A stretch of 64,000 nucleotides of DNA from Asterochloris sp. CNOR1. Its lineage: Eukaryota > Chlorophyta > Trebouxiophyceae > Trebouxiales > Trebouxiaceae. A program made the translations under genes and the position numbers. Positions 5,101-62,200 of the stretch are shown in pieces; within the stretch, counting starts at the first letter, position 1; each line of letters starts with the position of its first letter. The stretch is from contig OZ017752.1 in NCBI GenBank assembly GCA_963969365.1, positions 1,364,001 to 1,428,000 of the forward strand, in the 5' to 3' direction. The notes below the pieces were generated by a model. It saw only the letters and a list, made by a program, of their open reading frames with translations. It made no database searches and had not been told where the DNA came from.

Positions 5101-6256
5101 ACCCAGGCAAGCTGCAGACCCGCGCGCATGGCGACTCTACACCCACCTGGGCAATCTCCAGCATGTGCAATACGCCACCAGGCAGGGCCCATGCACTGCT
5201 GCTACAATTGCACAAAGCCTCCTGCAGAAGTCTCTTGGTCAACACTGATCACATGCTGCATCTTGGCAGAGGTGCGCATGCAGACAGCCAGCCTAGAGGC
5301 AGTCATGAGCGCCTATCGAAGAACAAAGCATCCAGACAACGACACCTGGGCGATGTTGAGGACGTGCCGCATCTCAGCAAAGTTGGGCGGCACATAGCGC
5401 CGCCGCGACAGTGCAAAGTGCTCGTCGTACTCGCGGAAGGCCTCCACCAGGCGCAGGGGCGTAAAGAAGGACCCCACGCTGGGGACCATGCGCCGCAGGC
5501 GGCTCTGGCGTGAATCCTGCCGAAGCTCCACAATCCAGCGCTCCATCTTCTGCATGACCTGCAGGGGAGGGAACTGTGTTGTGGCGCAGCTTTGAGGAGT
5601 CAGGTTGGAGGGCGCAGGGCTTGCCATGCCGAGGGCGCCATGTCATCCAGTGCTACATTTCTGCACCAGTGTGACCTTCCCAGCCATGAACGATCCAGTA
5701 GTGGGCCAAGGTGTGGGCCATGTCACCTCCACGCTGGGTGTTGGGTGCGTGAAGCCTTGTGCTCAATTCAGCAGTCATGACAAATTGCAATCTCCTTCTG
5801 CAGATGCAGGATGCGTGCGCAGCAGCTGTGCTGACATCCACGTCCCCACCCGCCACTTGACCTCCTTGCGGGTATGGGTTGCCTTGAGCCTTGCGCTTTG
5901 CTCCATGCCATGCTTGGCCCACCTCGGTGATGACATGCATCATGCCTGCTGCACCTCGTCGTTGGCGTGGGGGTTGCGCATCGAGCCTGCTGCCAGGTCC
6001 AGGAGCAATGCAGATGGAGAGATACCACCCTAGTTCACCTCCTCGCTGGTGTGGGTGGTGTGCATCTGCAGCAGGAACTCGATGAACAGGTCCTGCTCCT
6101 TGAGGTGCCCCTTCCTGCGCAGCACGCCGGCGTCAGAGGCGCTCTTGGCCCGCCCGCCAAAGCTCTCGGGTTCTGGCGAGGCCAATAGCTCCTGCCAGTG
6201 TGTCCCAGAGCTGCTGGAGGAGCTGCCGCTGGCCCCTTGGATGGCTGGTTCCTGAC
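2196..6256 (-). CDS. ISN1: IMP-specific 5'-nucleotidase (ISN1 family, HAD-like)
   Basis: Predicted to hydrolyse IMP to inosine in purine salvage. Exons on the minus strand: 5346-5558 (RRMVPSVGSFFTPLRLVEAF, then RRRYVPPNFAEMRH), 4630-4787 (HAD motif I FDADGTLYADG, then VAIVTAAG), 3974-4066, 3497-3692 (VVGGECNYLLR), 2854-2987 (RAVGIIPGAP, LPFCAFNG), about 2500-2592 (GGDVFVDVGNKSLGLEAL) and 2196-2330 (ALHVGDRFTQSGND, ILWVANPLET, stop). These blocks follow the order of yeast and Plasmodium ISN1. Phases agree across every join except the donor of the 2500-2592 exon, which is unresolved (GTGGAT at the SVDP codons, or a non-standard site). The upstream exon ending at 6039 reads HLKEQDLFIEFLLQM, which resembles the N-terminal HLK...DEFIDWV helix of yeast ISN1. 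It is probably the first recognisable exon, and the initiator Met is not located. Function is inferred from family. Confidence 0.85.
5724..6055 (-). repeat. Series of exon-edge copies in the first ISN1 intron
   Basis: The donor edge of the upstream ISN1 exon, plus-strand cacctcctcgctggtgtggg at 6036-6055, is followed by three degraded copies: cacctcgtcgttggcgtggg at 5952-5971, gacctccttgcgggtatggg at 5859-5878 and cacctccacgctgggtgttg at 5724-5743. Spacing is about 85-135 bp. Translated, they echo the exon end MHTTHTSEEV as MRNPHANDEV and similar. They are read here as intronic duplicates of the exon edge, not as exons. Confidence 0.65.
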
Positions 6257-6341
6257 CTGCACGGCACAACGGTGACCTGCGTGTCAGCAACAGGCCCAGA
6301 GCCCATACTGGCATCCTGGCCGGGTTGCACTTTACCTGCAC

Positions 6342-7208: not shown

Positions 7209-7530
7209 GCTCAGGAGGTGACAGGGGTAGCCTGTTCGTTCCAGGCAGGGGCAATAGTGGAGGCAACCATAATCAAAAGCGCAACGCCCAGAACCAGCGG
7301 CTGGTCATTCCAGGGCAGGAGCACCAGCCCCAGAAGCTCGGGCAGCCCGGACTGAGCATGCCTGGAGGTGGCAACGCGCCTGTCACCAGCTTCAGGTCTG
7401 AGAAGCCCATCCTTGTTCAGACGTGGCTGGATGGCTGCTGAGGTGCCTTTTGGCCGCAAGGCATGGTGGGTCAGTCTCACAGGCCCAGCCAGGCTGAGTC
7501 TGGTGACATCAGGCAGCTGTGGACTATGCC
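7209..7530 (-). CDS. Orphan C-terminal exon with one membrane segment
   Basis: A minus-strand open frame, continuous from about 7530 to a stop at 7209, ends with a basic stretch, then LPELLGLVLLPWNDQPLVLG and a hydrophobic run (VALLIMVASTIAPAW) followed by a short polar tail. This looks like the C-terminal anchor of a small organellar, perhaps thylakoid, membrane protein. An acceptor-like CCACAG lies just upstream at about 7523. I do not recognise the family. The plus-strand frame through the same bases is Gly/Gln-rich and looks like a shadow. Upstream exons should lie between 7530 and 8130, overlapping the RAF1 5' region, but none could be fixed. Reality of the gene is uncertain. Confidence 0.3.
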
Positions 7531-8136
7531 AGGATGACTGAAACCTATCCCCCTACACCCTCAGAATCATGGAAAGTAGAGCTGTTTGCTTGTCCAGTGC
7601 TGGCAGCGTTAACAGGCATGCCGCCTCTTCTTTCAGATCTTGCTCCTGCCATGCAGCCTTCATGGACATGGAAAAAGCAACATCCCACCGTTCTGCACGC
7701 TGCCAGCAGCCTTCAGAGATGCGAGGGAGGCTTGCAAGCTCTGCGTCGCAATAGCGGCTCTCTCTGCTGCTGACCACCACGAGGTGTCCTGGGCAGCGAT
7801 GCAGAGACTTATTGCATCTGAACCTGTCTCTCTCTGCTGCAGGACGCGTCCTGGCTGCATTGGCGGCAGGAACACTGTTCATCTCTCTCAACTCACCTCC
7901 TCTTGCTGTGGTCTGCTGCTGCAGGCCGCCGCCTGCAAGCACGTTCGCATGCGAAGCCACTCTCCAGCCAGGTGGCTCACAGAAAAGCAACTTGCCACTG
8001 CTTCTCGATCATGGTTCCTTACTGCTACAGGCTGCTTGGGGGACTGAAGAGGCCACCCTCCAAGCAGCAGAGGGGCAGCAGGAAACCTTCAACCAGGCAG
8101 CTGCACTTGTACTGAAGCTGGCTCTCCCTGCTACAG

Positions 8137-11100
8137 GCCACCCCCCGGCTTCATGGATGCCGAAGAGGCCAACCCCTCGGCAGTAGAGGGGCAGGCAGGC
8201 GACCCCCAGCAGATGCTGGGCAACCTGCGTCAGGGCACAGGGCACTGGCATGACCTGGCGCGTTTCCTGCCACGGCTGCAGCGTTTGGGATATGACAGCA
8301 CTCTGATTGAGCAGGAGACTGGGATGGAGCGGCGAGTGCAGGACAAGTGGCAGGTCAGTCCACAATGATGGGTGCTTGTGGCTGGTAGGTAGGGGAGTCT
8401 GCTTCAAGAGGAGCTTGGGGTGGAGCAGCTGGTGCAGGACCAGTGGAAGGGGATTGGGAGGCAGGTGAGGCCGGGAGCAGTAATGATGTGTGCAAGGTGG
8501 TGTGCTGTCAGCATTGCAAACAAACAGTGTGTGGAACAGATTGCAGCATCTTGCTGGCAGCCGCCTACCTGCCTGCACTCAGCCTCAAAAGGTTGCCAGA
8601 GCCCAGCTGAACGAGTGGGCTCGCAAAATCGCTTCTTTGCTGCTTGCCATAAAGGCTGCTACGCCAACTTGTCCTTTGCTTGCTGGGCTACTTGTGGCCA
8701 TAAACATGTGCGCCTCACTCGCCTCTGGGGGCACTGCACCCCAGGTTTCTGGGGTCCTTCACCCTCCTGAACCCCACCACAGCAACTCTCCCATCTGCGC
8801 CCCACCACAGCGTGTCTGCCCATCTGCCCTGCAGGTGGCCATGAATGTCTATGACTCCCTGAAGTCTGGGGGTGCTGTGCCCCCTGAGCGCCTGGCGTAC
8901 TTTGATGCAGAGGAGGGCGCTGACCTGTTGTACCAGCTGCGCTTCCTCACTGCGGACTACCGCATCGCTGCAGTCAACTACCTGGTGGACGAACAGGCAG
9001 ACCAGGCGGTAAGCAAATCAAGCAGGCATCTGCATGCGAAAATCTGCCTGGGCCTCGCTCATGACTGCACGGGGGCTTCTCTTGCATGACCTCGGCTGCT
9101 ACTGCACTCGGTGGCCTGGGCCGTCTTACTTTGCAGCCGAGCTGCTGTGTTACAAAGCGCTGGCTGCCGTCAGCTATAAAGGCAACAAAGCCAAAGTGCA
9201 CAGACGCACCTTGTTGCAATGTGCATCTGCGGCCTGGAAGCACGCTTTACACTGCCTGTTTCAAACCCCTCATTGTGTGGCTGAGAGCAAGTCAACCAGG
9301 CCTTGACCTGCAAGGCGCAATGCAGCATGGCGGGCAGTGAGGCAGCCTTACCTGCAGCTGCCTCCCCCAGGCTGCAAGGGAGACTTGCCCCAGGAGCCAT
9401 GTCACGAATGGCCAGCTAGCACTCAGCCCCATGTTTGTACCCCTTTCTGGCCTTTATCTAGGACAACTCTTACCCCGAGGGTGGTGGCACGGTGGCACAC
9501 TCTGTTCAGCTGCACATGCAGGTGAAGCAGTGCGCAGCCAGCCACCGTCCTCCCCTCAAGAGGCTTACAGTCTTGGTCTTGCCGCCTATGCAGGGTGCTG
9601 TCCTGCTGGCACGTGCCATGAAGGACTACGAGCGGAAAGGGGGCCTCAAGGATGGCTTCAGCTCTGTCCCCGCAGACTGCGTGGCCTATAAGTTCTACAG
9701 AGATGTGAGGCCAGAGCTGCTGTTCAGTGTGATACATATATATCATCCTGCATGGTTGCTCTGCCTGGCACGTGTTCAACCTGTCCTGAGATGTGAGGCT
9801 GCCATGGCTACCAGCTCCAGCGCCAAGGGTGACTTGGCTCCACACCACAAAGGGGCATGCGACTCAAATGTGTCCCACAGGGCTGCCATGGTCCAAAGGG
9901 CCGCATGCTAACTTTTTGTTTGATGCAGCTGCATAGGGGGGCAGACCACGCTGTAACTTGCCACCTGTGCTTTGCCCGCTGTCATTCTACCTGCACTGTT
10001 GATGCAGCTGCGCTTCACTGCTGGTTGCAATTGCTGCAGGCGCTGGAGACCCGCAAGCTGCCTGAGAAGGAGGCTGCCGTCAAGAGGGGCCTTCAGGCGG
10101 CCGCCACCGACAAGGCCAGAGAGGCACTGGTGCGCATATGAGCACCTAGCAACCTGACGCAGCTTGCATCAGTGCAGCACCCCTGCGACGAGTTGGTAGC
10201 CAGCCCTGGCTGTGTCCTGGCACGCTGTTCCTGCAGACATTCGCAGCTGTGCTTGCTGCATTGCAGTTTGCCCCAGTTAATACCACCCCAAGGCAGTCCC
10301 ACTTACAGCCGCTCCGGTGCCCCAGCTGCTCAGCTGTGCTGCTGCACTGTGTGCTGCCCCCCCCCCCCCCCTCCCTGTCTGCAGCCAGCCAGGACCAATG
10401 CGGGTCTGAGCTCCTTGCTTCTGCAGGGGCGTCTGGTCAGCTGTGCCAATGCCAGCTCTGCTGCCTGACTCCAGGCCTCAGCGTCCCCACTGCTGCAGGA
10501 GTGCCATTTCTGATGCCCAAGCCAGGCCCAGCATCTGGCCCAAGCAAGGAGGGGCTGTCCATCATCATCCCTTTCAGCTGCAAGCCCATTCTTGCTGCAG
10601 AAACGCCGGGTGAGGCCCCAAGTGGGCAAGGAGCCAGCTTCTGGTGCTCTGCCTTTCTCAGTGCCCTCTCAGTGTGCAGGGCATCTGCCTGCTGCCCAAG
10701 GTCAGCCTCAGCCGCCCTTAGCTCTTGCTGGTCCCCTCTCCTGCAGCAGTGGTTGCCAGGCCCAGCCGCTCTGGCTGACAGTCAGCCCTGCCATGACCCT
10801 GCTGCAGGAGCGCCTGGTGAGGCCCCAAGCCGAGGAGGCCGAGGCCAAGGCCGAGGCTCTCCCCACAGCCCACCTGGAGGTCATCAGGCTGACCCAGGAA
10901 GAGATTGGGTATGCCCCCATCGCAGTGGCTGGTGCGCTGACTGAGGCCTCGCCCTCAGACGTGCGAGCCGCCCCCTCCAGCAGCCGGCGGGGCGCCTTCA
11001 GCACCTTCAAGGTGCCGGCGTCGGACGGCGAACAGACCTGGATGGTGAGCTGAACTGCCCCCTTGGCTTCGAGGGATTGCAGGGCTCCTGTGATGGTTGT

Positions 11101-11741: not shown

Positions 11742-11850
11742 GTTTGCCTCTTGATACTGCTCGCCCAAACACATGTTCAACTCACACTGAACTGATGCAT
11801 ACTTCACAAAGCAGAAAGTGACTTCAGACTGATAGTTCTGATGACTCGTA

Positions 11851-13396
11851 TCACCCAGACGTAACTTTCTCATACCGTTCTGCAACGTCCTTCCAGTTTA
11901 CAACCTTCCAGAAATTGCTGAGGTACTCAGGCTTCCTGTTCTGGTACTCTGCAATAGCAAGACACCATCTGGCTCTGAACGTCACTGTGTTGGGCACGGC
12001 GACTCAGCGTGCACTTGGCACACAGAATCTGCACGCAGTACCTTGCATGCAGTTGTCTAAACTCACTCAAGTACATAGCGTGCTCCCACATGTCGCATCC
12101 AAGCAACGGCTGCAGCCCCTGCATGAGGGCATGAAGTATCAGATACTGCCGTTGAAGGCAGGAGCATATCAGGAGTGCCTGTCAAGCATGGCGTGGGCAC
12201 GACCCCACCTGTGTGACAAGCGGGTCCTGATTGGCTGTTGATGACACCACCAAGCGCTTCTGTGCGGGATTGTAGCCCAGCCACGCCCAGCCGCTGCCCT
12301 GCAAACAGTTGTGCTTCATGCATCGCAACACAAATGCAGCTTAATCAATGAGCGCATGTCTGCAGTGCTGGCAGTGCCTGCACTGTGTCTCAGGCAAGAA
12401 TGAGGCTACCCAGTGGCATGATGTCCCGACATTCCCTTTGCACCCCCAAACATGTGCTTTGCAGCAAAGTCTATGATTGTAGTCAGCGGAGCTTACCTGG
12501 ATGCCCTTTGCAGCATCATCTATTTTTGTGGTCAGCTTGTCCAGAGACCCAAACTCCTCCTCAATGGCCCTCTGCAGCTTCCCAGAGGGTGGCTCATAGT
12601 CCTGCAGCAGTAGCAGCACGCAACGCATCGGCGTCCCAGGCATACCTCAGTAAGCATACATCAGCCTGTTGAGTCATTGCATGCATGTTCAGCTCATGGC
12701 AAAATCGCTGTTGCAGCCGCGTCAGAAGGACGCACTCCATGTCAAAGTGCACTAAGCAACAGGGTGCTTGGCAAAGAAGGGAAGACGACCCTACCTTGGG
12801 TGGAGTCAAATTCTGCCAGAAAATGCTGTGGTTGACGTGCCCTGTGACACAGCAAGATTGCACAGAGTCAGCCACCTGGAGAGCACTGGCAGAGGCAGTA
12901 GGGTGCTGATCTGCCCAGGGATGTGCTGTGGGAAATGTCTAAAAGCACTTGTGACCTACCTCCACCATTGAATTTGATGGCCTGCTGCAGCTGGATCATC
13001 TTGGGAACATCCGTCTTGGACTCAGCGCTCTGGTACTGCTCATAGGTGCTGTTGAGGTTGGTGACATAGGTTTTGTGATGCGCTCCATGGTGCAGCTTCA
13101 TGATTTCTGTATGGACGTACAAAGAAGCTTCTGAAGCTGGTGTGCCCATGCATCATTGCAGGAGACAACACACCATGCAAGTGCAGGCTCATGGATGCAA
13201 CCATGCATCAATGGGCAAATCTGCATAGCTGGGCAAGGCAGCAGCCAGTGAAGCTTCTACCTGCAGGAATATGGGGCTCCAAGGCTCCATAATCGTAGGG
13301 CAGATCAGGCAGGCTGACACTGGTGAAGCACCGTCCAGACGACCCCAGCCCTGATCGCAGGGCCCTGCTGGCAATCTCGGAGGTGGATCGCAGCAT
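11851..13396 (-). CDS. MSD1: Manganese superoxide dismutase, mitochondrial
   Basis: Dismutates superoxide in the mitochondrial matrix. Seven exons (13261-13396, 12960-13106, 12795-12841, 12497-12601, 12209-12298, 12067-12118, 11851-11948) join with all phases consistent to 225 codons, 224 residues, normal for MnSOD with a presequence. The N-terminus ([20 protein letters not shown]) is Arg/Ser-rich without acidic runs until the mature start [13 protein letters not shown]. Metal ligands are visible: His in the [10 protein letters not shown] block, His in HVNHSIFW, and Asp and His in [26 protein letters not shown] and the end [20 protein letters not shown] place it in the Mn rather than the plastid Fe class. 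The start at 13396 is the only Met in a good position. It is divergent from the DUF4336 gene and convergent with RAF1. Confidence 0.95.
12457..12525 (-). repeat. Copy of the MnSOD exon-4 donor edge
   Basis: Plus-strand ctttgcagcatcatctattt (12506-12525), inside exon 4, recurs as ctttgcagcaaagtctatga at 12457-12476, just inside the intron. The similarity continues through TTGT and GTCAGC. Confidence 0.5.
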
Positions 13397-42293: not shown

Positions 42294-43512
42294 TCACTGG
42301 TCTGACACTGAGTGGAGCTTGTCCACGCGCTGCTGGACAACATTGTCGATTTGCTCAATGAAGGAGTCTGTGACCTGCTGAATATCCTTGTTCATGCGCT
42401 CCTTGTCACCCTGCAGGCCCCAGGTTGACACTGCATGGGACATGTGCTGGCTCAATCCCACAGGCCTGGGGCTCTGGTTAAGACTTGCTGATCTCTGGCT
42501 GCAACCAACAGGCGTTGCCTTCATGCCACTTCCCAGGTACTTAGGATCTCTGAGAACACTGCAGTCCGCAGTGCCCGAGGGCCAGGCATGCAAGCAGGCG
42601 CCAGACCTGTGAAATGTCACGCTCGTAGTCTGCCAACCTCCCAATCTTCTGCATTAGGTCCCTTCTGACATTCCTGATGGCAATCCTGCACAGCAAAGGG
42701 CAGCTCAGGGGCTAGCCTTTGTGCCTGGGCCAAAGCATGTGCAACCTGTCGCTCTCACCTGCCCTTCTCTGCGACTTTATTTGCCTCCTTCATTGTCACT
42801 GAGCGGTCTTCCTGAGTCGCGCCTGCAGCAGCTCTGTGCTGACACATCGGCGTCCACATGGTAGGAACGTCAGGGCAGACGTTGGGCAAGCATACTGCAA
42901 GGCAGCCTGGATTCTCGCAGAGCGACAGCTAACCTGCAGCTCGCATCCTGCTCAGATCATTCTGAGTGGTGTCAATGGCTTTAGACATCTTCTTCTCTGC
43001 TGTGCTGTGGAAGCTGCCAAGGATGCTCTCATAGCGCTCAGCTGCAGCAGCAACCAGAGACAAGGTCAGCCAGCCGACTTGCATGAGATGGCTGCATTGG
43101 AGCTGAGGTCAGGGCCTGTACTGACCTACAGGCTCAAACTCCCCAGACTCCTCTGCTGCATCCAGCTCGTGTTGCTTCTTGGTGTCTGGCATCCGTTTGA
43201 CTGTGCTTGAATGTGCCCTGCAGCTTTAGGGAGCTGGGCTGCTCAGTTTGCCAGAGGTCGATGCATGCAGACCCAAGTGCTCCATCTGTCACCATTGGCA
43301 GACTTCAGAGCCTGTCAAGGCGCTATTGAGATCACCCACCTCATTGAGCGCTGATGACAAGACAGACACACCTGCCTCCAAGCTGGCATGCTGCTCTTCA
43401 GTCCACTGCCTGAGTGATGTTGAGGGCACACATCCGACAGGAGTGTGCGACAGGGACTCAAGATGCTGAGGGTTGTCCGGCAGCACTTGCCCAGGCTGCT
43501 CCTCATAAACAT
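42294..43512 (-). CDS. Ribosome recycling factor-like protein lacking domain II, organelle-targeted
   Basis: RRF splits post-termination ribosomes together with EF-G. Six exons (43340-43512, 43126-43217, 42934-43041, 42759-42822, 42607-42685, 42294-42410) join with every phase consistent to 211 codons, 210 residues. The first 57 residues (MFMRSSLGKCCRTTLSILSP onward) have no acidic residue before the first Asp and are basic and Ser-rich, like an organellar presequence. Helix 1 is FHSTAEKKMSKAIDTTQNDL followed by SRMRAAG. Helices 2 and 3 are EDRSVTMKEANKVAEKGRIA, IRNVRRDLMQKIGRLA and NKDIQQVTDSFIEQIDNVVQ. IRNVRRD is the RRF hallmark. The roughly 70-residue domain II, normally inserted between helix 1 and helix 2, is absent: the intron there (42823-42933) is only 111 bp and joins the two halves in phase. 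Recycling activity is therefore uncertain. Confidence 0.85.
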
Positions 43513-47200: not shown

Positions 47201-50200
47201 CAGGTTGGTCCGGGCAGATGCATGCTAACTCACTTCCTGACTGGCTGCTGAGGGCCATCGTCCTCAGCTGCCACCTGCTTGGGCTCGCCATGCATGTCCT
47301 TCAGCCGCAGGACCTCCAGCCAGGTCAGCTGGGACTCAGTGAGCTGCAGAGCACAGCAGTGATGGCGACATCATGGTCAATATGTTTGACTGTCTTTGGC
47401 TGGGATCTCAGCCTCATAACGTCCAAAACCAGTCAGGTCGGACTCCACGTGCTGCACAGAACTGCGGTGAAAGATGTTGTGACCGTTGTGCATGGACAGG
47501 ATAGAAGCTGAGGTGAGCAGAAAGGCCTGTTGTGCACGGCCAGCTCCCTGGTGCAGCTTGCATTCATGGGTGCTCATCAAGACGTGGTGAACATCTCCAG
47601 CCCCAACTCAAGCCATTGATTTCATGTTGACTGATCTCGCTCGACACAAGCAAGGTCCCCGTCTAAAAGGATGATTGCAACATGACTTTGCAAGTGACCG
47701 TAGGCACAACCTCACCAGCCCAGCCCCCAGCCCCGCTCCCCTCCCCGTTGCCCTACGATGTACTTGCTGTAGCTACTGACGATGCTCTAGCTCTCAGGAA
47801 GCCAAGCAAGCAAGCAAGCAGCCCTTGATGTCATGCCAATGAGCAGGCACTGCCTGTCTCACGGGCTCACCAAGACGGAGGTGCCCATCTCTGCGATGAG
47901 CTTGCTGTAGCTCTCGATGATGACGCCAACCAGCATGTTCATCCAGTGGCACCCAATGAAGAAGGCCACTGCCAGCACAAACAAGCCGCCGCTCCACTTT
48001 GAGTGATACAGCTGAGGGGAGAGGTCGTGACCTGCAGGTCACCCAGCCCTGCTGCTGCAATGGGGTTGCAGCGCACTGCACGTGTGTAATTTGGGGGAGA
48101 GGTTCAGACCTGACGAGCCCCCGCAACATTGTGCAGCTTGAAAGAGGTTTTTGGGGTCTGTGGGCCACCTCTTGCATTGGTGGAGCCAGGGGGAGGCCAG
48201 CAGAGACAGGCCGCTACGTTAAAGCTAGGCACTGGAATGAGGTGCCCCTAAGCAGCCAGTGGGAGATGCAAGTTCAGGCTGGCCAGGACTGGGCTCAATT
48301 GATGTGAGGCCATGCTTCTGCATGGCCGCAGCATCACCAACAAGGCTGGTGACCCAGAAACAACATCCCCTGCAGCTCTGACAAGGTCGGTGCTGAGGTT
48401 GCTGCTTCTCTGTGCCTCGGCAATGACTGTATGCCAGTTGCATCTGCCTCACTCACCCACGGAGTCCATGCACTGGTAGCACACATCGTCCATGAAATTA
48501 TCCAACACACTGACATGGAAGACAGAGATGAGGGAGTATCCGAGATTGTCAAAGTTGTAGAAGCTGTTCAGCCATTCGCGAGGGATGGTGTTGCCCACAT
48601 CTGACCCGCAGTTGTCATCGGCAGTGCAGGTGAAGTTGCCCACACACTGGGTGCGGTTCATGATGGCGGTGCCGTCGTCTGTTGTCTGCAGGTGGCCAAC
48701 TGGATGTCAGTTACAGGCCTGTTGGGCCATGCAGGGCTCCAGGGGAGCTCTCATTTGGCTGATCAAGTGTGAGCCGGTAGGTTCGCAGGCATGTCTCCTG
48801 CTGCAGCAGTGAAACGCTTGGCTGCAGGCAGTGATGCAGGCAAAGCAGCCAGCTGACTCAGACTGCCAAGGCAGGTAAGATGCACTGCAGCAGGAGCCCA
48901 AGTTGCTCAAGGACAGCTTGGCCTGCATGATAGAAACGTGCAGGCTAGTAGGGCTTGCCATAGCATTGCAGGACCCCAGCTTGCCGGAGAGCAGCTGCAC
49001 CCCTGGATGGCAGTATGCAGGCTGCCAACTGCAGCGTTGCTGGAGTCGTGCTTACTGCAGAACGGCTGCACACCATGATGGCAATGTGCAGGGTTCAAAG
49101 GCATGGGGCTCACCGCAGAATTGCAGGAGCCCAGCTTGCCGGAGAACAGCTGCACCCCCATGATGGCAAATACCAGGTATTCAAACATGCCAAAGGCGAC
49201 CACACCAGCCACTGAGGGCATTGAGCGGATCAGAGCCAGCAGCACCACTTGCATGCCCTGCAGGTGCAGCCAAGAGGGCTTCACAGGGTCACAGTGGCTG
49301 ATCATGCAGTGCATGTGTCAGAGGTTGCAACCGCATGCACTCTGTGCACACCTGACGTCCAGTGACACTTTAGGCTGAGGCTGGTCCATGCAGCCAGCCA
49401 TGGCAACAGGTGGCTGCAACACAGCAGAATCTGTAGCTTGGGCAACGCAGCCCGTTCAATCAAAGCAGGCAGTGCTGGGTGTTGTGCGGGCACGCAGACT
49501 GGGTGCTTTAGCAGGTCACAAATAACGCAAACCATCTCACAAATCCTTGTAGTACAACAAACCCTGAACCTTGGACACCATTCTGCGGGAGGCACAGCAC
49601 GCAGCAGCAGGCGCAGCACATTCATCATGGCCAGAGGGCTGATGTTGCTGTGCATTGTGGCCAGGTGGCACTGACCATAACCTGCTGGCTCAGCTGCAAC
49701 ATCCTGAATGCCTGAAACTGGTCAACAAGCCCCAAGCCCCGCACCTTGAACCTGGATATCATCCTCAGCGGGCGCAGCGCACGCAGCAGACGTAGCACTT
49801 TGATCATGGCGAGGTGGCTGCTGCTGCTGTAGAGAGCAGCCAGGGAGGTGACCACAATCACCAGATCCAGCTGGTTCCAGGGGATGCGGAGGTAGGCGCC
49901 CGGGTGCAGCACCAAGCCCAGGGCAATGATCTGCAGGCAGGCCCCTCATAAGAGGGCTGTGGCATGATGGGTGTAGCAGAGGTGGCATGATGTCCAGGCA
50001 GAGCCCATTTTTGACACACCAGCACGACCATTTCCTTCCATGCTGCCTCTCAATGCAGCAACATGCAGAATAGAGCATGGGCTCCTGAGCTCTGCCCTGC
50101 AAGCCCCTGCCATAGTAGCAATTGGGGAGAAGAGCCTCCACATGTTAGCTGGGCATGGTTCTCCTGGCTTCACGGAATTCTTGCTCACCATCAGCCCTGT

Positions 50201-53200
50201 TGCCTTGTTGAGCAAGCCATAACAACCTTGTGGCAGCTGCATATGTGATGGCGCAAGACCCTGAGGTGCCTTGCCTTCACCACGGCATCTGCCAGGATGG
50301 CAAAGGCAGGAGTGAAGCTGACCATTGTGCACCCTAAGGGCCCCTCACTTTGACCACAGCCACAGCAGTGGACCGGCAGCCACAGCCACATCAACAAAGC
50401 GGACGCTGTGGGCCCTCACCTTTAGCACCGCCTCTGCCAGGAAGGCATAGGCGAAGATGACATTGCACACCAGTAAGGCTTGCGCCAGTCGGCTCTGGGG
50501 CTCCAGCCCAGGGCGGTCCAGCGCCAGAACCACACTGGAAGCCAATATGAGCAGCAGCACGAAGCTCTCAAACCAGGGGGAGGTGGTCACCCGAATGAGC
50601 AGCAGGCGGGCAGGGTTAGTGCCCCCCAGCAGGAACAGGGACCTGCATGGGTAGGGGGCGCCTGGTGTCAGTACCAGAAGAGTGAGGGGCCATGCATGCG
50701 CAGCAAGTGAAGGGTTGCTTCCCACTGGCAGGGACAGGAGGAGCCTGCACGTAGCACAGCCCATGCAAAGCTGGCAACATGCAGCCAACTGATCCATGGA
50801 CAGGAGGTGGTGCACATGTGCAAGAAACCCCAGACGTGAATGCTGTTCAGGAGAGAGCAAGGACCGAAATGTGCAGCGCACAACAGTTTGTCATGTCCTA
50901 ATGCAGCTCGCTAGATTGCAGGTGGAATTGGTGCAGGAAGGTAGGTTCCTTTCAGCCTGCAGCAGAAATCACACCCCACCATATTGCCAGTCCAATCTGG
51001 AGACAGGCCAACTGCAGACAGCAGGACAAAGCTGCGCGCGCGCGCATCGGGAATGGGTCTCGTGGGCAAAAGACAGCTATGCACCAGAGCAAGAAGACTC
51101 CTGCTGCCATCACTGCAGCGGCTGTGGCAATGACGCCCTGCTGATTGCGCGACGTTGAGTGGCATGAGGGATATACCTGGATTGCAGCGACGGCGCATTG
51201 GCAGCGATCCGCTACTTACCTTTCAGTGCTTCCAGATCCCAGGCAGGCAGCATGCTCCGTGGCTTACCTGGACTGCAGCAATAATGCAAAGGCCGGATGC
51301 CGCTTGTCCTGGGTATTGCTTACAAGGTGATTTATCACAGTGTGCTTGCAGGCAAGAGACAGCATGGGGAGGGCCCCCCCTCAAGGATGGCTGCAGCTGC
51401 TTGCAAACCTCTGACAGACAGAATCTGCAGCAGTCGACCAGGCACTCACCTGGACCGCAGCGACAGCGTGACGGCAGCCTGCTGCTGCTCCTGGATGTTG
51501 GCTGACAGTGCAGGGGCCTGGCTGCCCTCCTGTGCCTCTCCTGCAGGTGGCGCCTCACGGTGCTCCGGAGGGGCATGGCCGCTCTGCATGGTGAAACTTC
51601 CCAGGGACAGCAGCGGGGAGGCACTGCCCTCAGTAGCCTGCAGCTCCACCGAACGCAGACGAGACGGCGCTGGCAACCTCTGCAGCAGTCGAAGAACACA
51701 GTGAATGAGGCCACAGCATGGTGTGCTCAAATTACCGCTACCTTGTCTTTGCTTCGTAAGCAGCTGCAGTATCTGCAGCGCAGCCCCTCATACGGCAACA
51801 GCACCACGTACATCCAGAATTGTCTCAGCCATAAACCTGTCAAGAACAGCACAATTGAGCCAGCTGACAGGAGGCCAGTGTCGACAACGGCACCAGAGGT
51901 GAAACCTGCGGCATGGAGGGCAAAGCTCACCTTGGGAGAGGCGAGGCTGAGAGCTGACATTTGGCTGGGCGACAGCAGAGGGGCGTTGCTGCTGGTAGAT
52001 GCAGTCCTCTCGATGTCCGGCTTCTGCGGGGAGGGGCTCTCGCCAGCCACTTGTACAAGACAAAGCAAGCGTGTGAGGAAATGGAACTGTCTCGCGTTGG
52101 GACTGCCAGCAGACACCAGGAGGGTCCAAGTCCTGATGTCAGCCATTGTAGGCTTGAGAGCAGCCAATGAATGGCCACTGTGGCATTCAGGATGTCTTCA
52201 AGCATCTAGCAACCTTTCCGGGGTCCACTACACTGAGCTGCACCTAAGCCCCAACCCCAAGTCAGGCCTCTAGTTCCTGCAGATGTCTGCTAAGTGCAAA
52301 GAGCTTCAGCAGCTCAGTGCGTCAGCCACTGTTGTGGTGCAACATGCATGCACAACACGCCAAGCTCAGGCCAGGCAATGCAGGAAGCGCTGCTGTGGTG
52401 CAACATGCGTTGCTCGAGGCATTGTATCACAGCTGACGCCCTCGCTCAACTGACCTGCCCACAAGTCCGGGCTGCCGGCTGACAGGCGGCTCTTCTTGTG
52501 CCCCACAGCATGCGGGTGGGGGCTCAGCACAGGGACTGTGTGCTGCTGCTGCGCGTCCACATCGCCCGCCAGACCATCCTGGGAGGATGTTCGGGCCTCT
52601 GGCTGCAGCAACCCCGCGCTGGGGGTGTCTGGCTCTGGTGCCACCACCTGCATGCACAACGAGCTGGGAGGAACAGACTTGTGCAGCACAGCCATGGCCA
52701 CTGCCTGACAGCCATGCTCAACAAGGTGGCAGACCAGATGCACACTGCATCCGCCGTAGTGTCCAGCAGCAGGGACCCGTACCTTTAGGCTCAACAAGGC
52801 AATGGCGATGTGAGGAGAACACAGTGCCTTGCGGTGCCGACAACAGGCAGCACAGCGGTCCCGCTCATACTGCACCTGGCATGCAGCTACAGGGGGGGCA
52901 GCCCAGGCCATTGTGTGTGGGCAAAGACAGCACAACTCAGCACAAGCAGCAGCCCTCCCTCCTTTGCACTCACATTGCGCTTTGCGCGCAGTGTGAATGG
53001 CGGCAACTTGAGCGGGGGCGGCTCATGCTCAGGATGCTCCTCAGGCCGCTCTGCTACCTCCTCAGCCTGCTGCCCTGGCCTGACGCTGGGCACGTCACGC
53101 ACCATGGTGCCCATGCGCGTCATAAACATGTTCTTCTTGTTGCCCCGGCGGGCGTGTGACGGCGAGGGCAGCATCACTGCAGGGTACCAATGATGGTGAG

Positions 53201-56200
53201 CTTGATGGCCTTGAACGCTGACAGGCTGGCGCATGTTCAAGCCTTCAGACAAGCTGGCTCCAGGAGGCTTGCCATGACTTTGCATGCAGAAATTCGAAAT
53301 GGCATCAGTTGCATTTGGTTTCCTCCCCTGATATTTATGTGGCACTTGTCAATGGTAGAGCTGCCAGCACTGAGCTGACTTTGAGCCAGAACGTTTAAAG
53401 CTTGCGGACACTCACTGGGATCTGTCTTGACAAGGTGGAAAGCAGGGTTGTGGCTCTGTGCAGGGATCCTGTCCCCTGCCTCAGGCTCGTCAGCCAGCTC
53501 TGCACGCATGGACGCTGCCAGCCGCGCAAAAGCCTCTTCCTGCATCACCTGCTCCTGAACTGACTGCAGCAGCAAGAGCACCATGGCATTAGCAGAGCTG
53601 ATACTGTCAGCATCCACCTGACAATACAGCGGTTGCAGACCTGTTGTCTGCTCCTGGACAAGCTGCACGGGCAGGGACATGACAGACTGCAGGACAGGTG
53701 GAGCTGCCAGCAGCAGGCACAGCAGCACACGAAGCATGGAGACATGTGTATTTCCTGCAGGATCGGTCCTGCCACGACCTGCCCCTGCATCACCTGCTCC
53801 TGGCACAAAACCCCACACAGCTGGAGCTGTCAGTTGAAGTAGGGGCCCGCAGAGGCTGCAGGTGCACGTGAGCACCTGTAGAGATAGGGGCCTGTGGAGT
53901 GCAACGACAGGGCACATCGCGACGAAATACAGTGCTTGCTAATCCCATGAGCTGCTTCTCTGCACAGCGCCTTGCTTTTGGATGGGCAACACTGCAGCAG
54001 CAGTGGCCACTGCAGCACCATGATGCAGGGCTGGCAAAGGCCACTCCTGGCAAAGGCGAGCCATGCTGCCACATCATATGGTGCTGCAGACGCTCCGCGG
54101 CATGACAGTACAAAGCTGGTATTGCCTGAACACAGTGGTTGTCCATCCTCACCTATAAGCTCCTCAGCTCCCAAGACAATAAGTGCTTTGACAGCATGTG
54201 GCTGCAGCGAGACTGTGCTGGCAGTGCCCACCTCCAGGTCCTTGACCCCATAGGTTGTTCCCAGGGACACCAGCCAGCGCCGCATGCGCAGCACCTGGCT
54301 GCGATCGGTGCGCGGGCCCCCCTTAACCAGGCGCGCAAAGTGGCCTGCTGTGGGTGCTGCCCCTGGAGTAGTGATCGGGCTGGGCTGTGAGAACTTGACA
54401 TCCCTGCACAGGGCAGCAGGTTGCTATTGGATCAGGCAGAATGTGCTTGCCAGGCGCATGCCAGCTGAAATCGTAGACCATGAGCAGCAAATGCTGCGAA
54501 AGCAGGCTTGTGCAAGCGAAGACGCTGCCTGCTGCCGCAGGAGCTGGCCCTTGTGCGGAGGCTGCATCGCGCTGCGCCGACGATGCGTACCAGCAAAAAA
54601 GACTGGTTCACGGTGTGGCTAACACAATAATGTACGTATAGCAGAGCTGTTCTGCAAGAGTCTTCACCTCTGTAGGCAGTATGACTCCCAGTCATGGCAG
54701 CAGTACTATTGGCCCAGGCAATTGCAGTGGCAATGGCAAGCGACCCTGAGGTTGCGACCAGAACCAATATCCTCCCTTGCCGGGCAGGTGAAACCACTGC
54801 TGAGGCCGCCTTCAGTGAGGGCGGTTGCATGTCGTAATGATTGGACATCACAGGCCTGCAGCGTTGAGCTCACTGGCACAATGCCAGCAGCGCTGCCCAC
54901 GACAAGCATCTGCAGCAGCTGATTCGCTGACATCTGTGCTTTGGCTCCCATGGTTTGGGGTCCTAGTGGCTGGTTACGGGGTAGTCCATCACATTGTCAA
55001 AATTGAGACTGCTGCGACCAGGCAGCCTTGCTTGCACGACATGTCATCTGCCCAGCAAGTGCAGCCCTGGAATTTTGCCAGCATCTACCAAAGCGCTTGA
55101 GTGCAGTTACTGACTTGAAGCCATGGGAGTCAGTGGAAGCCCGTTTGAGACCGTCCTCGCCGGTGACGCGGTAGCCTGGAATGCCTGAGTCCAGATCCAG
55201 AGGTCCATGGGCTAATGTGACAGGCATCACAGCACTGGGATTCTCCATGCCCACTTCCTCTGTGGCCCCAAAGTCCTCCTATGCCAGCAGGTGAGGTGCA
55301 TGTGCTGAGAGAGTTGCAGTGGCCCTCAGGTGCAGCTGCAGGTGCTTGTGAAGACGCAGACTGGGCTCCGCAGACCCCGGCCGTTAGGGAAATGGGAGCA
55401 GTGATCATGCAGCAATGGCTGTTGGGCTGGTACGGTTGGCCTCAACAGGCATTCATGCAGGCCCCGTAGCTGGTGAGAATGTGCTGGGATTGCAGCCAGG
55501 GACAATGTCATTGCCCTGACGTGCTCTTGCGTGAGGGATGCCCTGCCCAGATTACTGAAAAGCTTCAGTAGCAGCCATTGTACCTCCCCACACAGGTGCA
55601 GCACAGACGACTGCAGTGAGGGCACAGCTGCCATAGCAGGAGCGCGATTTGCTGCTGCTCTGCAGAAGACGATTGGCAGAGTGTGGGCTGAGCCCGTAGC
55701 TGCATTGACTCACTGTGAAATTGTCAATTAGAATAGCCAGGAACAGGTTGAGCAAGACCTGTCTGCCGATGATGTTCCAGGACACGTAGTAGATGATTGC
55801 CCAGTGACCCACTGCGCTTTCAGCATCCCACATCATATTGGTCCAATTGGAGTTCATGAGAGCCTCAAAAACCTGCACAACATACCATTGCACGGCATGA
55901 GCAGGCTGAGCCTGCCAGCCCTGATTTGACCAGCATTGGTGCAGCTGTGTGGTGCAGGGGAATTGGCAAGCTTTGCAGTACTGGGCAGCGCAACAGGCTC
56001 AGCCAGAAATGCTGGCACGCTCTTTGAGCCCCCGGCCTGCCAGCATATGGTCGACACTGCATGGTATCAGAAGAAGAAGCTGCTGATGTAGTGGCCTCCT
56101 TGTAGTACCACGCAGCAGGTTACGTGCTGGATGAAGCCAGGATGATCTGTCAAGAGTGCCTGGGACCCAGTGGAAGCTGCTGAACCACAAACAGCTGGCA

Positions 56201-59200
56201 GTTTGTTGAAGGCTCACAAGCCGCACCATCTCACCGTGCACATAGCCTCAAAGAAGCTGTTGAAGTTCTTCCGCCAGGTGAAGGCTAGGTCGTTGTTGGG
56301 GCTGAACCAAGGGTTGCCCCCAAACAGCGACATCCCCAGCACAGCAAAGATGAACCAGAAGAGCAGCAGGAGCAGCATCATGTCCTTGATGGCTCTGAAA
56401 CTCTGCGAGACAGCAGCAGCACGGTGTTGATGGGGCTGAGATTCTGCAGACAGGCACTCTGGGACCGCCAAACAGCAGCAGGCTGGTGCACAGCGGGTAT
56501 GACTGAAGTACTGTCTGCATCTGGACTACACTAGACTACACTGCAACTGGCTGACGGTGGTCAGCATGCTCTGCAACTGACACATGCTGATGGCACTGCT
56601 GGTGCTCTGCCTGATGGCCACCAGGACACCCTGTTGCTGGGGCACACGCTGTTTTGCACACAAGAACGCTGCTTGCCTTCAGCACCAGGGTCAGCAGCCT
56701 GTTGAGCCCCTTGATCTCTCGCAGCAGCTTCAGGCTTCGAAGGACGCGCAGCATGCGCAGGACACGAAATGAGCTGAAGCCGCCGCCACCATGAGTGCTG
56801 CCATCTGCAGCAGGCACGCCCAGGTGAGGAGCAGGGCACTGCTGCAATGCACGGCCCTTCCCTGCACTTGGCCATGTTGGCACATGGCAACCACATGACA
56901 TGTCACGAGCTGCCTGGGAGGAGGCGCTGGGATGGCAACAATGCACTGTTGCAGGGGTCATGGGCTGCGCACTGAAAATCATGCTTGACGCCCAGCTCTC
57001 TGATGCTGTCAGCAATGATGCCTCCATCCCATGTCATGGCTCAAAATGCACAGGTCGCAGGCTGATGAGGCTGCACCATGCATGACAAGGACAGATCGGC
57101 AGATCTGCAAGTGACATCAGGCCTCACGTGTAACGCCCAGCTCTGCAATGCTGGCAGCTACAATGGTGCCGTCCAAGACATTGAACCCCTGGCGCCAGTA
57201 GCCCAGCAGGCCCAGCGCAATGTGCTTGATAACCAGCTCAAGCATGAAGATAGCTGACAGCGCAAGATTGGCAGACTGCAGGCAGCACAGACATTTTCGA
57301 TCATCAGCGTCAGTTTAACTAACTGCCAACAGTACACACATGCGGGAAGAGCAGGTGCACGATGCCGGATCTGGGAAGGACGGCCTCTGGGAAGCGCAAT
57401 CAGTGAGACACGTCTGACAGGGTGGCAAGCAGATGCATAGAGCCTTACTAAAGACACCATTTACAAAGCAAAGGGGGCTCGACGTGGGAGAGCACAGGCT
57501 GGGGAGTGGCTCACAAGGCAGTACTGCCGGGTTTAGCATGCAGGCAAGCAATGGATGTTGGCAGCAGGGAATCAGCACTGGGTGGGGAGCAGCATGCAGG
57601 CCAGCAAGGGAGGCATCACACCTCCAGCTTTCTCTGGAAGGAGTCTGACATCCTGGCATGGTAGAGGGCCAGTACCAGAACATTTAGCAAAATCACTGTT
57701 GTGATGAAGCCGCTGAAAAGCCTACTCTCCACGGCACGGCGAGCAAGCTGCATGCAATAAGGGCAATGCGCTCACGTAGGCCGGGCTGACCTTAAAACAA
57801 CATGAGGCTGGCAGCAGGCTTCCATCAGGCTTGAGCATGGCAGCACAGAGAGGTTCAGCCCTGCAACGCGTCCCTCGCCACATACAAAGACAAGGCAGCC
57901 TGCTGCATCCAAGGAATCCTGCAGGCCATTCTGGCTGGCGTGTGCCGCTCGTGTTAAGATTGTGATGCATGTGAAGCAATCTGGCAGTGAAGCAGGCGCA
58001 ACTGTGCTGCAGTGCGCTGCGATGGGTTGTAGTGCCGTGGCCGCAGATGACAGGTGCCCCAGCCCCCCACACTGCAGGGGTGAGACCAGGTGGCAGAGGT
58101 GCACACCCTGCTGAAACGGGGCTGTAGGCAACAGGGCACCAGCCACTTGCACCCAAAAGGGACCAGCACTGAAGCATGGTGCGCAGCCACTGCACTCAAG
58201 GGCACAACAGTGAAGCAGAGGTGCCCACCCTTCGGTACCAAGGCTGTTGGTTCCAGGGGACCAGGTCCTCACGCTTCAGGCAGAAACTGAACAGCATCTT
58301 GAGCCACCAGAAGGAGGTGGTCAGCATGTCCCAATGCTGCCGCTCCGGGACGCCCTCCTTGGGGCGGGCCACAGTCTGCAGGGCAGGCACAGCGGTCAGC
58401 AGTGGGGCTGCGACGTGCGCCCAGCTCTGGATTGGCAGGCAGCTGAATCTTAGGGACTGAAGGCAGGCGACAAGGTCAGCAGTGGGATGGTGGGCTGCTT
58501 CCTGCGCCCAGCTGGAGAGGACATCAGAGCTCAGGGGCTGCAGGGCAGGCAAAGGGGTCAGCAAGGCAACTGCTGTGATGCCCAGCTCGGCAAGTGGGGC
58601 ATATGGAAATAGTAGCTGCGTGGGGCAAGCCTGTTACCCTGGATGCGAGGCACCAGTGCACAGGTCCCAGCATGTGAAGGAAGTGCAGCTGCCAGGGCAC
58701 TGCAAAGGTGTGCAGCCAGGCCAGCCCGCTCAGAAGCTGCTGGCCACATGCTGCCGCTGAAGACAACAGCTTGAGGCATGTAACGCGCGAGGTCTCCATG
58801 CATCTAGGCTGGCAAGAGTGGCAGGTAGCCAGGTTGGACATTGCTTTGCAGCCAGGCCATCCCCTACTGACATACAGCAGAGGGGCGGCAGACATTTGGG
58901 CTATGATGCTTCGCAGAAGCAGTCAGCAGGCAGACAGACAGGTGCACATATAGCTGGAGATTCTTCTGATGCTGACAGCTTGAAGGGCAATTGCAATGAT
59001 AGGAATTAGGGCCTGGCTAAGATTGGCAATAGGCTGCCAGGCTGGTCCCCAGACTGCCACTCACATGCAGCTGGGCAAACTTGGCGCTGATGACGGCTGT
59101 CAGCAGGTTGAAGGCAAAGTAGGTGCCAAAGAACACAATTGCCAGGTAGTAGATCAGGATGAGGTTGCCAAAGCCATTTATGGCAAAGTACAGCTGGCCA

Positions 59201-62200
59201 GGTTCCCAGGACTCCAAAGTCACGATCTGTAAGACTTGGAGGCAAGCCAAGCCAAAGTTATCAAAGCTGACATAGCCCTGCAGGCAGCAATATGTGGGCT
59301 GCTTGGGTGACGATTCAAGAGGCACGGAGGCAGTCAAAGCTGTCAAGCTGACACAGCCCTGCGAAGAGCATCTAAGATGTAGGGGCGGCAGGGTGCTGCA
59401 GTCTGTGGGGTTGGATGAGCAGCTGCAAGAAGATGCACTGGACAAGATGCGTGTTGAGCTGCAAAAAGGCAACGTTCAGTGCCGCTCCCAGCAGCATGGA
59501 CACTGCAGGGTGGTTATGGAGGGAAAGCCTGACACTGATTGTGCGACAGCTGCAAGCAGCATGAGCCTCACCCACCAGCTCTGGCTCCTGGTCGCCCTTG
59601 AGGCATACGTAGCCAGGCCCGCAGTCATACCTCCCCATCTTGATGCTGGCATGGCAGACCTGCTCTGACAGCGCATCAGGCACATCTCCTACCACGCTTG
59701 TCACTGGATCAACAGGGTGGCACCTGCCCAGCAACCTGCACATAATGCCGGGAGTGGGTCAGGCATTGGTAGTGTCCCTTGCAGGCAGGGCCAAGCATCG
59801 GCTTCATCTCTACAGGCCATTGTACAAATCTAACCAGCAGGCATGGGCCCAGCCGCTGGCTGCACAAAACAATTTACAGTCTTTGGCTCACGCAGGCATG
59901 CATTGCCCCATGTGCCCTGCATGTGCTGCATGCTGACAGTGCCAATCATCAGTATCAGCCATACCCTGAACCATGTTAGCCAGACACGAATAGGTATGCA
60001 GCGCCTCACCCGCCCTGCATGAGCTGCATGCCAATGATGCCAAACACGAAGAACAGCCACACCATCAGCACCACCACGTCCACCATGAGGGGGATACTCT
60101 CCACCAGTGTGCTGACCAGGAGCCTCATGCCTGCAGGTCACGCCATCACTGCACTGCCAGCCAAGTACAGCAGGCAGCAAGAGAGTCCCTGATGGGCCAA
60201 CAGCATGTGAGCTCACGCTGGTGCTGTACAGGCTGAGCAAAACTCTGGACAAGTATGCAGGCAGTGCTCAGGAAGCAGCCACTGGATGATCGGTACTGCT
60301 GCTGTTGTGCACACACACCTGGGTATGCATTGATAGTGCGCAGCGGCCGGAGCGCCCGGAACGCACGCAGGCCTGAGATGTCGGCGACTCCAGGAATGAT
60401 GGGGGTGTAGCCCACCAGCACGCACACCAGGTCCAGCCATGCCCAGGCAGTGGTCAGATGGGCTGCAGGCACAGCTGGGACATGCAGGTGCTGCTTGGCA
60501 TAGCTGGAAGGTGTAGGTGCTGCTTGGCATAGCTGAGAGATGATGGTGCGCCTTGGCAAGCAGACGGAACAATTTCATAAGGCCCTGCTGAAGGCAGGCT
60601 GCAGGCAAGTGCTACGATTCTTGGAGTGCTGTACCCAGGACTGCTGCTCCCTGCCATTGCGTTTGGCTGGTGGCTTCGGCAGCTGAGGCCGTTGCATAAC
60701 CTGTCAGGGTAACATGGGCCAGGCACAGGCACGTGCATACCTTTTGGACCAAAGAGCATGCACTTAGCGGTGCCTTGTATCAGGATCTCAGCTGTGAACA
60801 CTGCGGTGAAGACCCAGTCCGTTTTAAACTGGAACTGCAGGAAGCAGGAATGCACAGCCTGAGCATCAGCTGCCTTATGTTGGGGTAGCCAAGAGCATAC
60901 AGCACATGTCTGGCTGCATGCACAGGGCACACAACAGGAGCAGTAGGGTCAAGCCAAAACAAGCCCGGTGCCCAACGTCTACCTGAGACCATCGACTGGT
61001 TTTGTCACACTCATTGTTGCACATGGGGTCGGTTGCAGCCAGAGAGGCGCAGTTCAGAAGGATCATGGCGAGAACAAAGCGGTTGAACCATGGCCACTTG
61101 ATCAGCGCGCAAGCCCATGTGCGCAGCAGGTTGTCCGGCTTCAGAATGAAATACGCTCTGTCGTTCTTGTGCAACTGCACAGTACACAATGGAAATTGTG
61201 ATGGATGCTGGACACGCCTGTGGCGCAGTATGCCCTTGATGACAGCATGCCTGATGGGCTGCATGACGCACAGTAGACATTGCCGTTGCACTCGCTGTTT
61301 TAGCAACATTCTGCGGCTGACTACTTTGCTGGCATGTGCTGCACTGCCTCCTCCAGGCAGCTGGCCCATTCATTGCACCTAGTCAAAGTGGCCAGAAGCT
61401 GCAATGGTGAAGCGATCAGCAGGCTATGCCTGGCATATGTATCTGCTGCAGCATTTTGGACCCACGCTGCTGATCTTGTGCTGTCAACCAGACCATGGCT
61501 GGCAAGATGATCCTGCAGGACTCTGCTAACCATGCCGGAGACTGGTGCTGCAGAGCCTCCCTCCCGGGCAGGTGCTGCAGAAGGCTTGTCCAGGTAATGA
61601 AGCCACAGGCTGCTCTAGGCCCACGCCACATGTACTTGTGCTGCAGCACCTGCCTGCCAGGTTGCTGCTTGTGCAGACAGCTTGCCATAGGCTGCAGAGT
61701 TCTGCAGGTCATGCTGAAGACAGGTGCTGCAATACCTCCCAGACTGTGGCGCCAGTCTCTTGCAGGCAATGCAATTATGGGCTGCAATGATGGTTTTGAG
61801 CAAGCTGCAGGCTACGCCGCAAGCAAACCAGGCACGGCACCTCCCTGTTGGACTGCTTACCCAAACAAAGGGCTTGCGTGCCCATTTTAGGCGCTCTGCT
61901 CGTTTGGGCGGACTTGGATCCTTGCTGCTGCTGCCCACAGCTGACCCCAGAATGTTGCGCGCATAGGTGGATGAAAAGGATTTCCCCTGCTCCTCAACAG
62001 AGAGAGCCTCCTCGCCATTTTGCAGGCTGGCCGCACTTGTGTTGAGCCAGTTCCGGCTAAAGCTATCCTGCAGCCCCAATCGAGAGTATCAGAGAGATTG
62101 CTGCACAGCGACAGTTTGCTGCACCCAAGGCCTCTGTGCCTGGGGGCCTCAAAGTTACCTGGCTGGCCTGCAACTTTTCATTTATAGCTTCTGGGTCGAA

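What the first reader, a model, noticed from the sequence alone, without database searches (positions are those of the whole stretch)
5346..59345. Introns throughout the window contain degraded serial copies of the adjacent exon edge and its splice site ('exon-edge echoes')
In at least nine unrelated genes, the intron next to an exon boundary holds one to four imperfect copies of roughly 20-60 bp spanning that boundary. They occur on the acceptor side (RAF1, OSCP, acidic gene, transketolase, coiled-coil gene) and the donor side (ISN1, MnSOD, Ca2+ channel). Copies are spaced about 50-180 bp apart, all in direct orientation, and decay with or without a stop. Chance CTGCAG richness explains the splice hexamer but not the matching exon bases beyond it. 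Inference: repeated local tandem duplication across exon-intron boundaries lengthens introns and seeds decoy splice sites, and some may become new exons. I know of no description of this as a genome-wide habit.
Basis: partly seen in the sequence, partly recalled or inferred. Interest (0 to 1): 0.88.

Follow-up and report, generated by a model that had tools for sequence, protein, structure and literature searches.

The report
Tandem-duplicated exon edges inside algal introns
In this stretch of an alga's nuclear DNA, roughly a fifth of the exon ends tested have decayed copies of themselves, often with the splice site, in the neighbouring intron, most likely left by small tandem duplications that lengthened the introns and seeded false splice sites.

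Summary
Of 158 confident exon edges in ten gene models, 41 match their own flanking intron at p<=0.05 against wrong introns (7.9 expected; 8 in the inverted control), and 26 at p<=0.005 against dinucleotide shuffles (0.8 expected; 1 inverted). Exon bases alone still match (16 of 158; 2 inverted). Most telling, an exon end matches the intron on its own side (29 of 120) but not the intron across the exon (3 of 120). A scan without gene models finds 50 close direct repeats against 3 inverted.

Best explanation: ordinary tandem duplication across the exon-intron boundary, then neutral decay of the intronic copy. Mismatches are even over codon positions, so echoes decay as non-coding DNA. The pattern expected of intron birth is absent. 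Exon edges stand out at least partly because the exonic copy is conserved. Echoes often keep decoy splice signals and misled my own gene finder. Near-identical, young echoes are missing, which suggests a past wave. The mechanism is known; ten searches of open papers (capped lists) showed no description of it at this density.

The parts
3307..3537 (-). ISN1 donor edge 3537-3477 and echo 3363-3307
   Evidence: 43/61 identical, distance 174; p=.005 edge and exon-only
5212..5412 (-). ISN1 exon end 5412-5323 and echo 5303-5212; donor called at 5337, a CAG|GTG eight bases upstream (exon ending 5346) is an alternative
   Evidence: 62/94 identical, distance 109; p=.014 against wrong introns but not among the edges at p<=.01
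5518..5665 (-). ISN1 acceptor edge 5554-5518 and echo 5665-5627
   Evidence: 30/40; p=.01 edge.005 exon-only
5945..6066 (-). ISN1 donor edge 6066-6029 and echo 5982-5945, donor GT kept in echo
   Evidence: 29/38 identical, distance 84
7818..8194 (+). RAF1 acceptor edge at 8137 with upstream matches 7818-7860 and 8046-8078
   Evidence: 33/43 and 27/33; edge 8136 p=.01 and .005
8302..8450 (+). RAF1 donor edge 8302-8354 and echo 8398-8450
   Evidence: 41/53 identical, distance 96; predicted exon 8438-8464 overlaps it and is probably false
10418..10829 (+). RAF1 acceptor edge at 10808 with three upstream echoes at 10593, 10490, 10418
   Evidence: 27/30 for the nearest, others; four-way alignment
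12452..12536 (-). MnSOD exon end 12501-12536 and echo 12452-12487
   Evidence: 28/36, distance 49; edge 12496 p=.005 in both tests; the only MnSOD edge of five
25112..25400 (+). Transketolase acceptor edge at 25361 with echoes at 25267, 25188, 25120
   Evidence: 27/32 for the best, others; serial alignment; exon edge agrees with the solved homologue; exon-only test not significant (p=.333)
36588..36712 (+). Acidic gene donor edge 36588-36612 and echo 36688-36712, GT kept
   Evidence: 21/25; exon-only p=.159
36859..37065 (+). Acidic gene acceptor edge 37009-37065 and echo 36859-36915
   Evidence: 42/59, distance 150
40516..40865 (+). OSCP acceptor edge at 40829 with echoes at 40634, 40577, 40525
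   Evidence: 29/35 for 40525, others; alignment; predicted exon 40485-40586 overlaps echoes and has no counterpart in the OSCP homologue; exon-only p=.095
45181..45372 (-). Channel acceptor edge 45246-45181 and echo 45372-45307
   Evidence: identity .79, distance 126
47080..47251 (-). Channel donor edge 47251-47215 and echo 47114-47080
   Evidence: 29/38; exon-only p=.06
47301..47470 (-). Channel acceptor edge 47362-47301 and echo 47470-47408
   Evidence: 46/64
47753..47922 (-). Channel exon end 47922-47891 (20 bp from the donor) and echo 47784-47753
   Evidence: 27/33; p=.005 in both tests
48865..49190 (-). Channel donor edge 49190-49099 with three serial echoes down to 48865, spaced about 71-84
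   Evidence: 73/95 for the strongest; 46/53, 35/47 and 34/47; four-way alignment
49561..49873 (-). Channel donor edge 49873-49743 and echo 49696-49561
   Evidence: 84/117, identity .73 over 131
50257..50534 (-). Channel donor edge 50534-50402 and echo 50390-50257, nearly filling its 144 bp unit
   Evidence: 90/135, fill .92
50575..50749 (-). Channel acceptor edge 50647-50575 and echo 50749-50679
   Evidence: 52/76; p=.015 edge.01 exon-only
51247..51507 (-). Channel gene donor edge 51507-51427 and echo 51324-51247
   Evidence: 54/81
53506..53802 (-). Exon start 53557-53506 (6 bp inside the acceptor at 53563) and echo 53802-53757
   Evidence: 39/53, 19/19 core; p=.005 in both tests
56979..57175 (-). 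Channel donor edge 57175-57124 and echo 57026-56979
   Evidence: 39/52
58093..58309 (-). Channel donor edge 58309-58215 and echo 58189-58093
   Evidence: 66/99
59239..59389 (-). Channel acceptor edge 59302-59239 and echo 59389-59319
   Evidence: 54/73.87 ungapped on a slightly shorter alignment
59894..60073 (-). Channel donor edge 60073-59992 and echo 59973-59894
   Evidence: 58/82

Best explanation
The echoes are decayed tandem duplications whose unit straddled an exon-intron boundary; copies now lie 40-369 bp apart. After such a duplication the splice site that still borders the complete exon gives the same mRNA, so the event is tolerated; the intron grows by one unit and holds a copy of the exon end and its splice site. 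The exonic copy stays under protein selection while the intronic copy drifts as neutral DNA. Repetition gives serial echoes. Shown: excess, direct orientation, own-side only, edge-spanning, non-coding decay. Inferred: the DNA step (slippage, unequal exchange or break repair), fixation by drift, and that most events are old.
For: Own-side intron 29/120 vs across-exon intron 3/120 at p<=.05. Exon copies lie at the edge: 19 of 25 exon-intron pairs within 10 bp (random 40%), none beyond 40 bp (random 23%). Direct 50 vs inverted 3. 26 of 32 alignments cross the boundary by >=2 bases. Some fill most of the unit (fill .92.92.83.82.79). Serial copies in transketolase, RAF1, channel and OSCP. Mismatch rate by codon position .232/.245/.218. 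The exon-to-echo substitution spectrum implies an equilibrium GC of .554, near the intron interior GC of .579. Intron-internal local repeats also exceed the inverted control (39/404 vs 16/404 at p<=.05).
Against: The purely intronic part of the unit is only weakly repeated: 3 of 29 pairs at p<=.05 and 13 of 29 below .25, expected if both intronic copies drift but not proof of full tandem units. Fill is below .5 in many of the 32 pairs. Young echoes are missing: 1 of 32 pairs has >=.88 identity where a constant rate predicts 31%, so a simple steady process fails. Inverted matches are somewhat high in ISN1 (3 of 13). No related strain or read data could be examined.
Confidence: 0.8

Rival explanations
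1. Chance or shared composition: the matches are CTGCAG/GTGAG splice consensus and local sequence bias.
For: CTGCAG is 12 times over-represented in the window, and some edges (9704, 25360, 27336, 36610, 40095, 40828) lose significance when only exon bases are used.
Against: Exon-only queries 16/158 at p<=.005 vs 2 inverted; across-exon intron of the same locality 3/120 vs 29/120 on the own side, with exon-only queries.
Confidence: 0.03
2. Relics of intron birth by tandem duplication of an AGGT-bearing exon segment (Rogers model): the upstream exon end should recur at the intron's 3' end and the downstream exon start at its 5' end.
For: The model is documented for other genomes (PMC4974935, PMC2891723; passages seen).
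Against: Positional test negative: 2/89 and 1/89 at p<=.05, 4.5 expected each.
Confidence: 0.04
3. [quoted passage not shown]
For: The intronic part of the unit is only weakly repeated.
Against: Such copying is expected in both orientations (recalled); here the excess is direct only. Exon interiors show little or no excess (4/45 and 1/43), though a patch mechanism would have no reason to stop at the edge.
Confidence: 0.08
4. Exon edges are true hotspots of duplication (for example R-loops or stalled forks at splice junctions), beyond the visibility advantage given by the conserved exonic copy.
For: Excess at edges is about five times that inside introns (27.9% vs 9.7% at p<=.05, both less 5%), more than the 1.8-fold expected for uniform ages (my integration). 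Exon-intron pairs are 25 of 50 where random placement gives 12.7.
Against: If most duplications are older than 0.2 substitutions per site, the simulation expects about 3.9-fold (my integration), and the identities observed are old. Intron-intron pairs are near random expectation (21 vs 25.8).
Confidence: 0.15
5. Echoes are kept by selection as alternative exons or regulatory decoy splice sites.
For: Decoy acceptor signals persist at 9 of 15 acceptor echoes against about 16% background, though the query included intron bases, which favours such echoes.
Against: No codon-position bias; only 10 of 143 gap runs are multiples of three; donor echoes keep a signal in only 6 of 17.
Confidence: 0.05

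Closest known systems
[quoted passage not shown] potato RdRp case PMC4974935; Drosophila cases PMC2891723)
   Same: A local tandem duplication that carries splice signals; in the potato case the duplicate copied an upstream intron-exon structure with its 3' splice site, and the same gene had a further 83 bp tandem duplication inside an intron (passages).
   Different: Here no new intron or exon is seen; an existing intron grows and keeps a decaying copy of the exon edge, at roughly a fifth of the edges tested after subtracting chance.
Short insertions as tandem duplications (PMC2374710; Messer and Arndt 2007, seen only in its reference list)
   Different: Those are short, and a minority there copy the reverse strand; here copies lie 40-369 bp apart, in direct orientation, and are recognisable at exon edges after heavy decay.
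Internal gene duplication (Gao and Lynch 2009, seen only as a citation; not held) and tandem exon duplication (recalled)
   Same: Intragenic duplication of exonic sequence.
   Different: Only the edge of the exon is copied, and the copy is not coding.
Introner elements (definition recalled)
   Same: They change intron content across a genome.
   Different: Introners are dispersed families; here each echo matches its own neighbouring exon better than other introns do (wrong-intron control).

Membership tests
Tandem duplication across an exon-intron boundary | Copies in direct orientation next to the source | tested here: met
   50 direct vs 3 inverted; 47 of the 50 are under 300 bp apart
Tandem duplication across an exon-intron boundary | Copied segment spans the splice site | tested here: met
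   26 of 32 alignments enter the intron by >=2 bases, 20 by >=7
Tandem duplication across an exon-intron boundary | Copy only in the intron adjoining that edge | tested here: met
   29/120 own side, 3/120 across the exon at p<=.05
Tandem duplication across an exon-intron boundary | Whole unit repeated, intronic part included | tested here: inconclusive
   3 of 29 at p<=.05, 13 of 29 below .25
Tandem duplication across an exon-intron boundary | Relatives lack the extra unit | not testable with these tools
   No genome held for this window; the collections offered hold prokaryotes, phages and plasmids, and no metagenome scan was allowed
[quoted passage not shown]
   2/89 and 1/89 at p<=.05, 4.5 expected
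Tandem exon duplication / alternative exon | Copy evolves as coding sequence | tested here: not met
   Uniform codon-position mismatches, frame-breaking gaps
Introner elements | Copies shared among unrelated introns | tested here: not met
   Own intron beats wrong introns of the window; far pairs are few

The most novel reading that the evidence does not exclude
In this algal lineage a past wave of edge-spanning tandem duplication was a main route of intron growth, leaving echoes at a fifth or more of all exon ends. Because the exonic copy is held nearly fixed by selection, each echo is a dated pseudo-copy with a known ancestor, so that one genome alone records its neutral mutation spectrum, its duplication rate through time and the loss of decoy splice sites.
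Probability: 0.35. Interest if true: 0.68.

Novelty: new variant of a known kind. Interest (0 to 1): 0.52.

Why it matters
Where introns get their length is an open question outside transposon-rich genomes. Here a visible share (5,322 of 41,442 bases between confident exons lie between an edge and its farthest echo, an upper bound) could come from duplications of the exon edge itself. Echoes act as decoy exons: my gene finder called exons inside echoes in transketolase, OSCP and RAF1, and solved homologues lack the first two. Gene models of such algae may carry many false micro-exons of this kind. The conserved exonic partner also makes each echo a natural clock.

Tried and rejected
A first gene-finder run collapsed into over a thousand tiny introns and was discarded; a minimum intron length and heavier penalties fixed it. 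One search printed its table and then stopped on a formatting error. let query and target overlap, so self-matches swamped it; it was discarded and redone. Rfam gave nothing at gathering scores. The blast scan counted only one order of each pair; one search replaced it.

A repeat-induced hypermutation idea, to explain the missing young echoes, was dropped because the exon-to-echo spectrum shows no C-to-T or G-to-A dominance. Assembly collapse could hide only nearly identical copies and does not explain the lack at 88-97% identity (reasoning, not tested). A strand test for decoys in intron interiors gave TGCAGG 64 vs its complement 110, but a general CTG over CAG bias (1659 vs 1359) confounds it. 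Fate of splice dinucleotides is inconclusive. Order of copies within arrays gave no clear nearest-is-youngest trend (identities).

Ten literature searches over open PMC papers: in the listed titles and abstract starts I saw no description of exon-edge echoes. Lists were capped (for example 12 of 120 and 15 of 782 papers shown) and one search returned none. Five papers were searched for passages (PMC4974935, PMC3488318, PMC2891723, PMC2374710, PMC2809761); none was read whole. Subscription papers are mostly not held.
Full report
What the window is. The 64 kb are nuclear DNA of a eukaryote with many short introns (donor GTGAG-like, acceptor CTGCAG). Gene content (RAF1, transketolase, MnSOD, OSCP, ISN1, an ion channel with several Ion_trans domains, UbiA) points to a green alga; this is inference. 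The transketolase is closest among solved structures to chains 5nd6 and 5nd5, which I recall as Chlamydomonas. No genome is held for it, so everything below rests on this window.

Observation. Outside one poor model my gene finder gave 237 exons; 99 passed coding and length filters, giving 171 edges, 158 with enough flank. For each edge I aligned 40 exon plus 10 intron bases to the flanking intron. 41 of 158 beat wrong introns at p<=.05 (7.9 expected, 8 in inverted flank). Against shuffles that keep dinucleotides, 26 of 158 reach p<=.005, inverted 1; with exon bases only, 16 and 2. Without any gene model, direct pairs 20-600 bp apart number 50 at score >=15, against 3 inverted and 3.4 expected from far pairs; some share an array.

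Where the copies lie. By class, edge queries match at p<=.05 in 20/70 (donor) and 19/70 (acceptor), exon-only near the edge in 15/69 and 12/69, exon interior in 4/45 and 1/43, intron next to the edge in 13/71 and 6/71, intron interior in 21/202 and 18/202; inverted controls lie between 0 and 7%. The same exon end matches the intron on its own side in 29 of 120 tests, the intron across the exon in 3 of 120. Of the 50 pairs found without gene models, 25 join exon and intron (12.7 expected by random placement), 21 are intron-intron (25.8), 3 intron-edge (4.0) and 1 exon-exon (4.6). Exon-intron pairs hug the edges: 19 of 25 within 10 bp, none beyond 40 bp. Several edges have serial copies: transketolase, RAF1, channel, OSCP.

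Nature of the copies. In 32 pairs, mismatches are equal at the three codon positions (131/564, 139/567, 124/568), and few gap runs keep frame (10 of 143). The spectrum of changes from exon to echo predicts a GC of .554, close to .579 in intron interiors. So the echo appears to drift as intron. Decoy splice signals remain at 9 of 15 acceptor and 6 of 17 donor echoes against 16% background; the acceptor figure is favoured by my query. Predicted exons that overlap echoes in transketolase and OSCP have no counterpart in the solved homologues. One in RAF1 is probably false too. A false ISN1 exon at 5147-5195 lies next to, not in, its echo.

Mechanism. A tandem duplication whose unit spans the edge explains direct orientation, own-side location, the edge position and serial copies. 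Duplications inside exons would often break the protein and are hardly seen (the one exon-exon pair is in the acidic low-complexity gene). Duplications inside introns occur, but there both copies drift. My neutral simulation shows that edge duplications stay detectable longer: integrating its table gives about 1.8-fold for uniform ages and about 3.9-fold for ages above 0.2. The observed excess ratio is about 4.9 (from, after subtracting 5%). Visibility therefore accounts for much or all of the edge preference if the duplications are mostly old; a modest real hotspot is not excluded. The Rogers intron-birth pattern is absent (2/89, 1/89).

What does not fit. One of 32 pairs has identity >=.88, where a constant rate predicts 31% (391 detected of 900 simulated). 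Loss of copies with age cannot cause this in a steady process. A past wave is the simplest reading; the simulation's indel and exon rates are assumptions. The intronic part of the unit is only weakly repeated (3 of 29 at p<=.05). Inverted matches in ISN1 are somewhat high (3 of 13).

Known or new. Tandem duplication carrying splice signals is a known source of new introns (PMC4974935 and PMC2891723, passages), and tandem duplication is the main source of short insertions in flies and primates (PMC2374710, passages). I saw no description of decayed exon-edge copies at this density in the capped lists of ten searches, which cover open papers only.

Noticed in passing
25931-26055: Tandem pair of a 60 bp unit (54/65 identical) inside a transketolase intron, 15 bp from a donor: one of the youngest-looking long duplications in the window.
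   Followed up: partly
60468-60558: Three 29 bp tandem units starting 5 bp from a channel acceptor.
   Followed up: no
whole window: CTGCAG occurs 243 times against about 20 expected from base composition; the confident acceptor edges number 87.
   Followed up: no
intron interiors: Sense-strand TGCAGG is rarer than its complement (64 vs 110); could be avoidance of decoy acceptors or a general CTG bias.
   Followed up: partly
42294-42822: A ribosome recycling factor domain sits at the end of a model that my gene finder fused to the ion channel gene; Pfam names both.
   Followed up: no
49113 and 50419: Two strong donor echoes carry GC in place of the donor GT (GCAAG), a sequence that can act as a minor donor in other organisms (recalled; alignments).
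   Followed up: no
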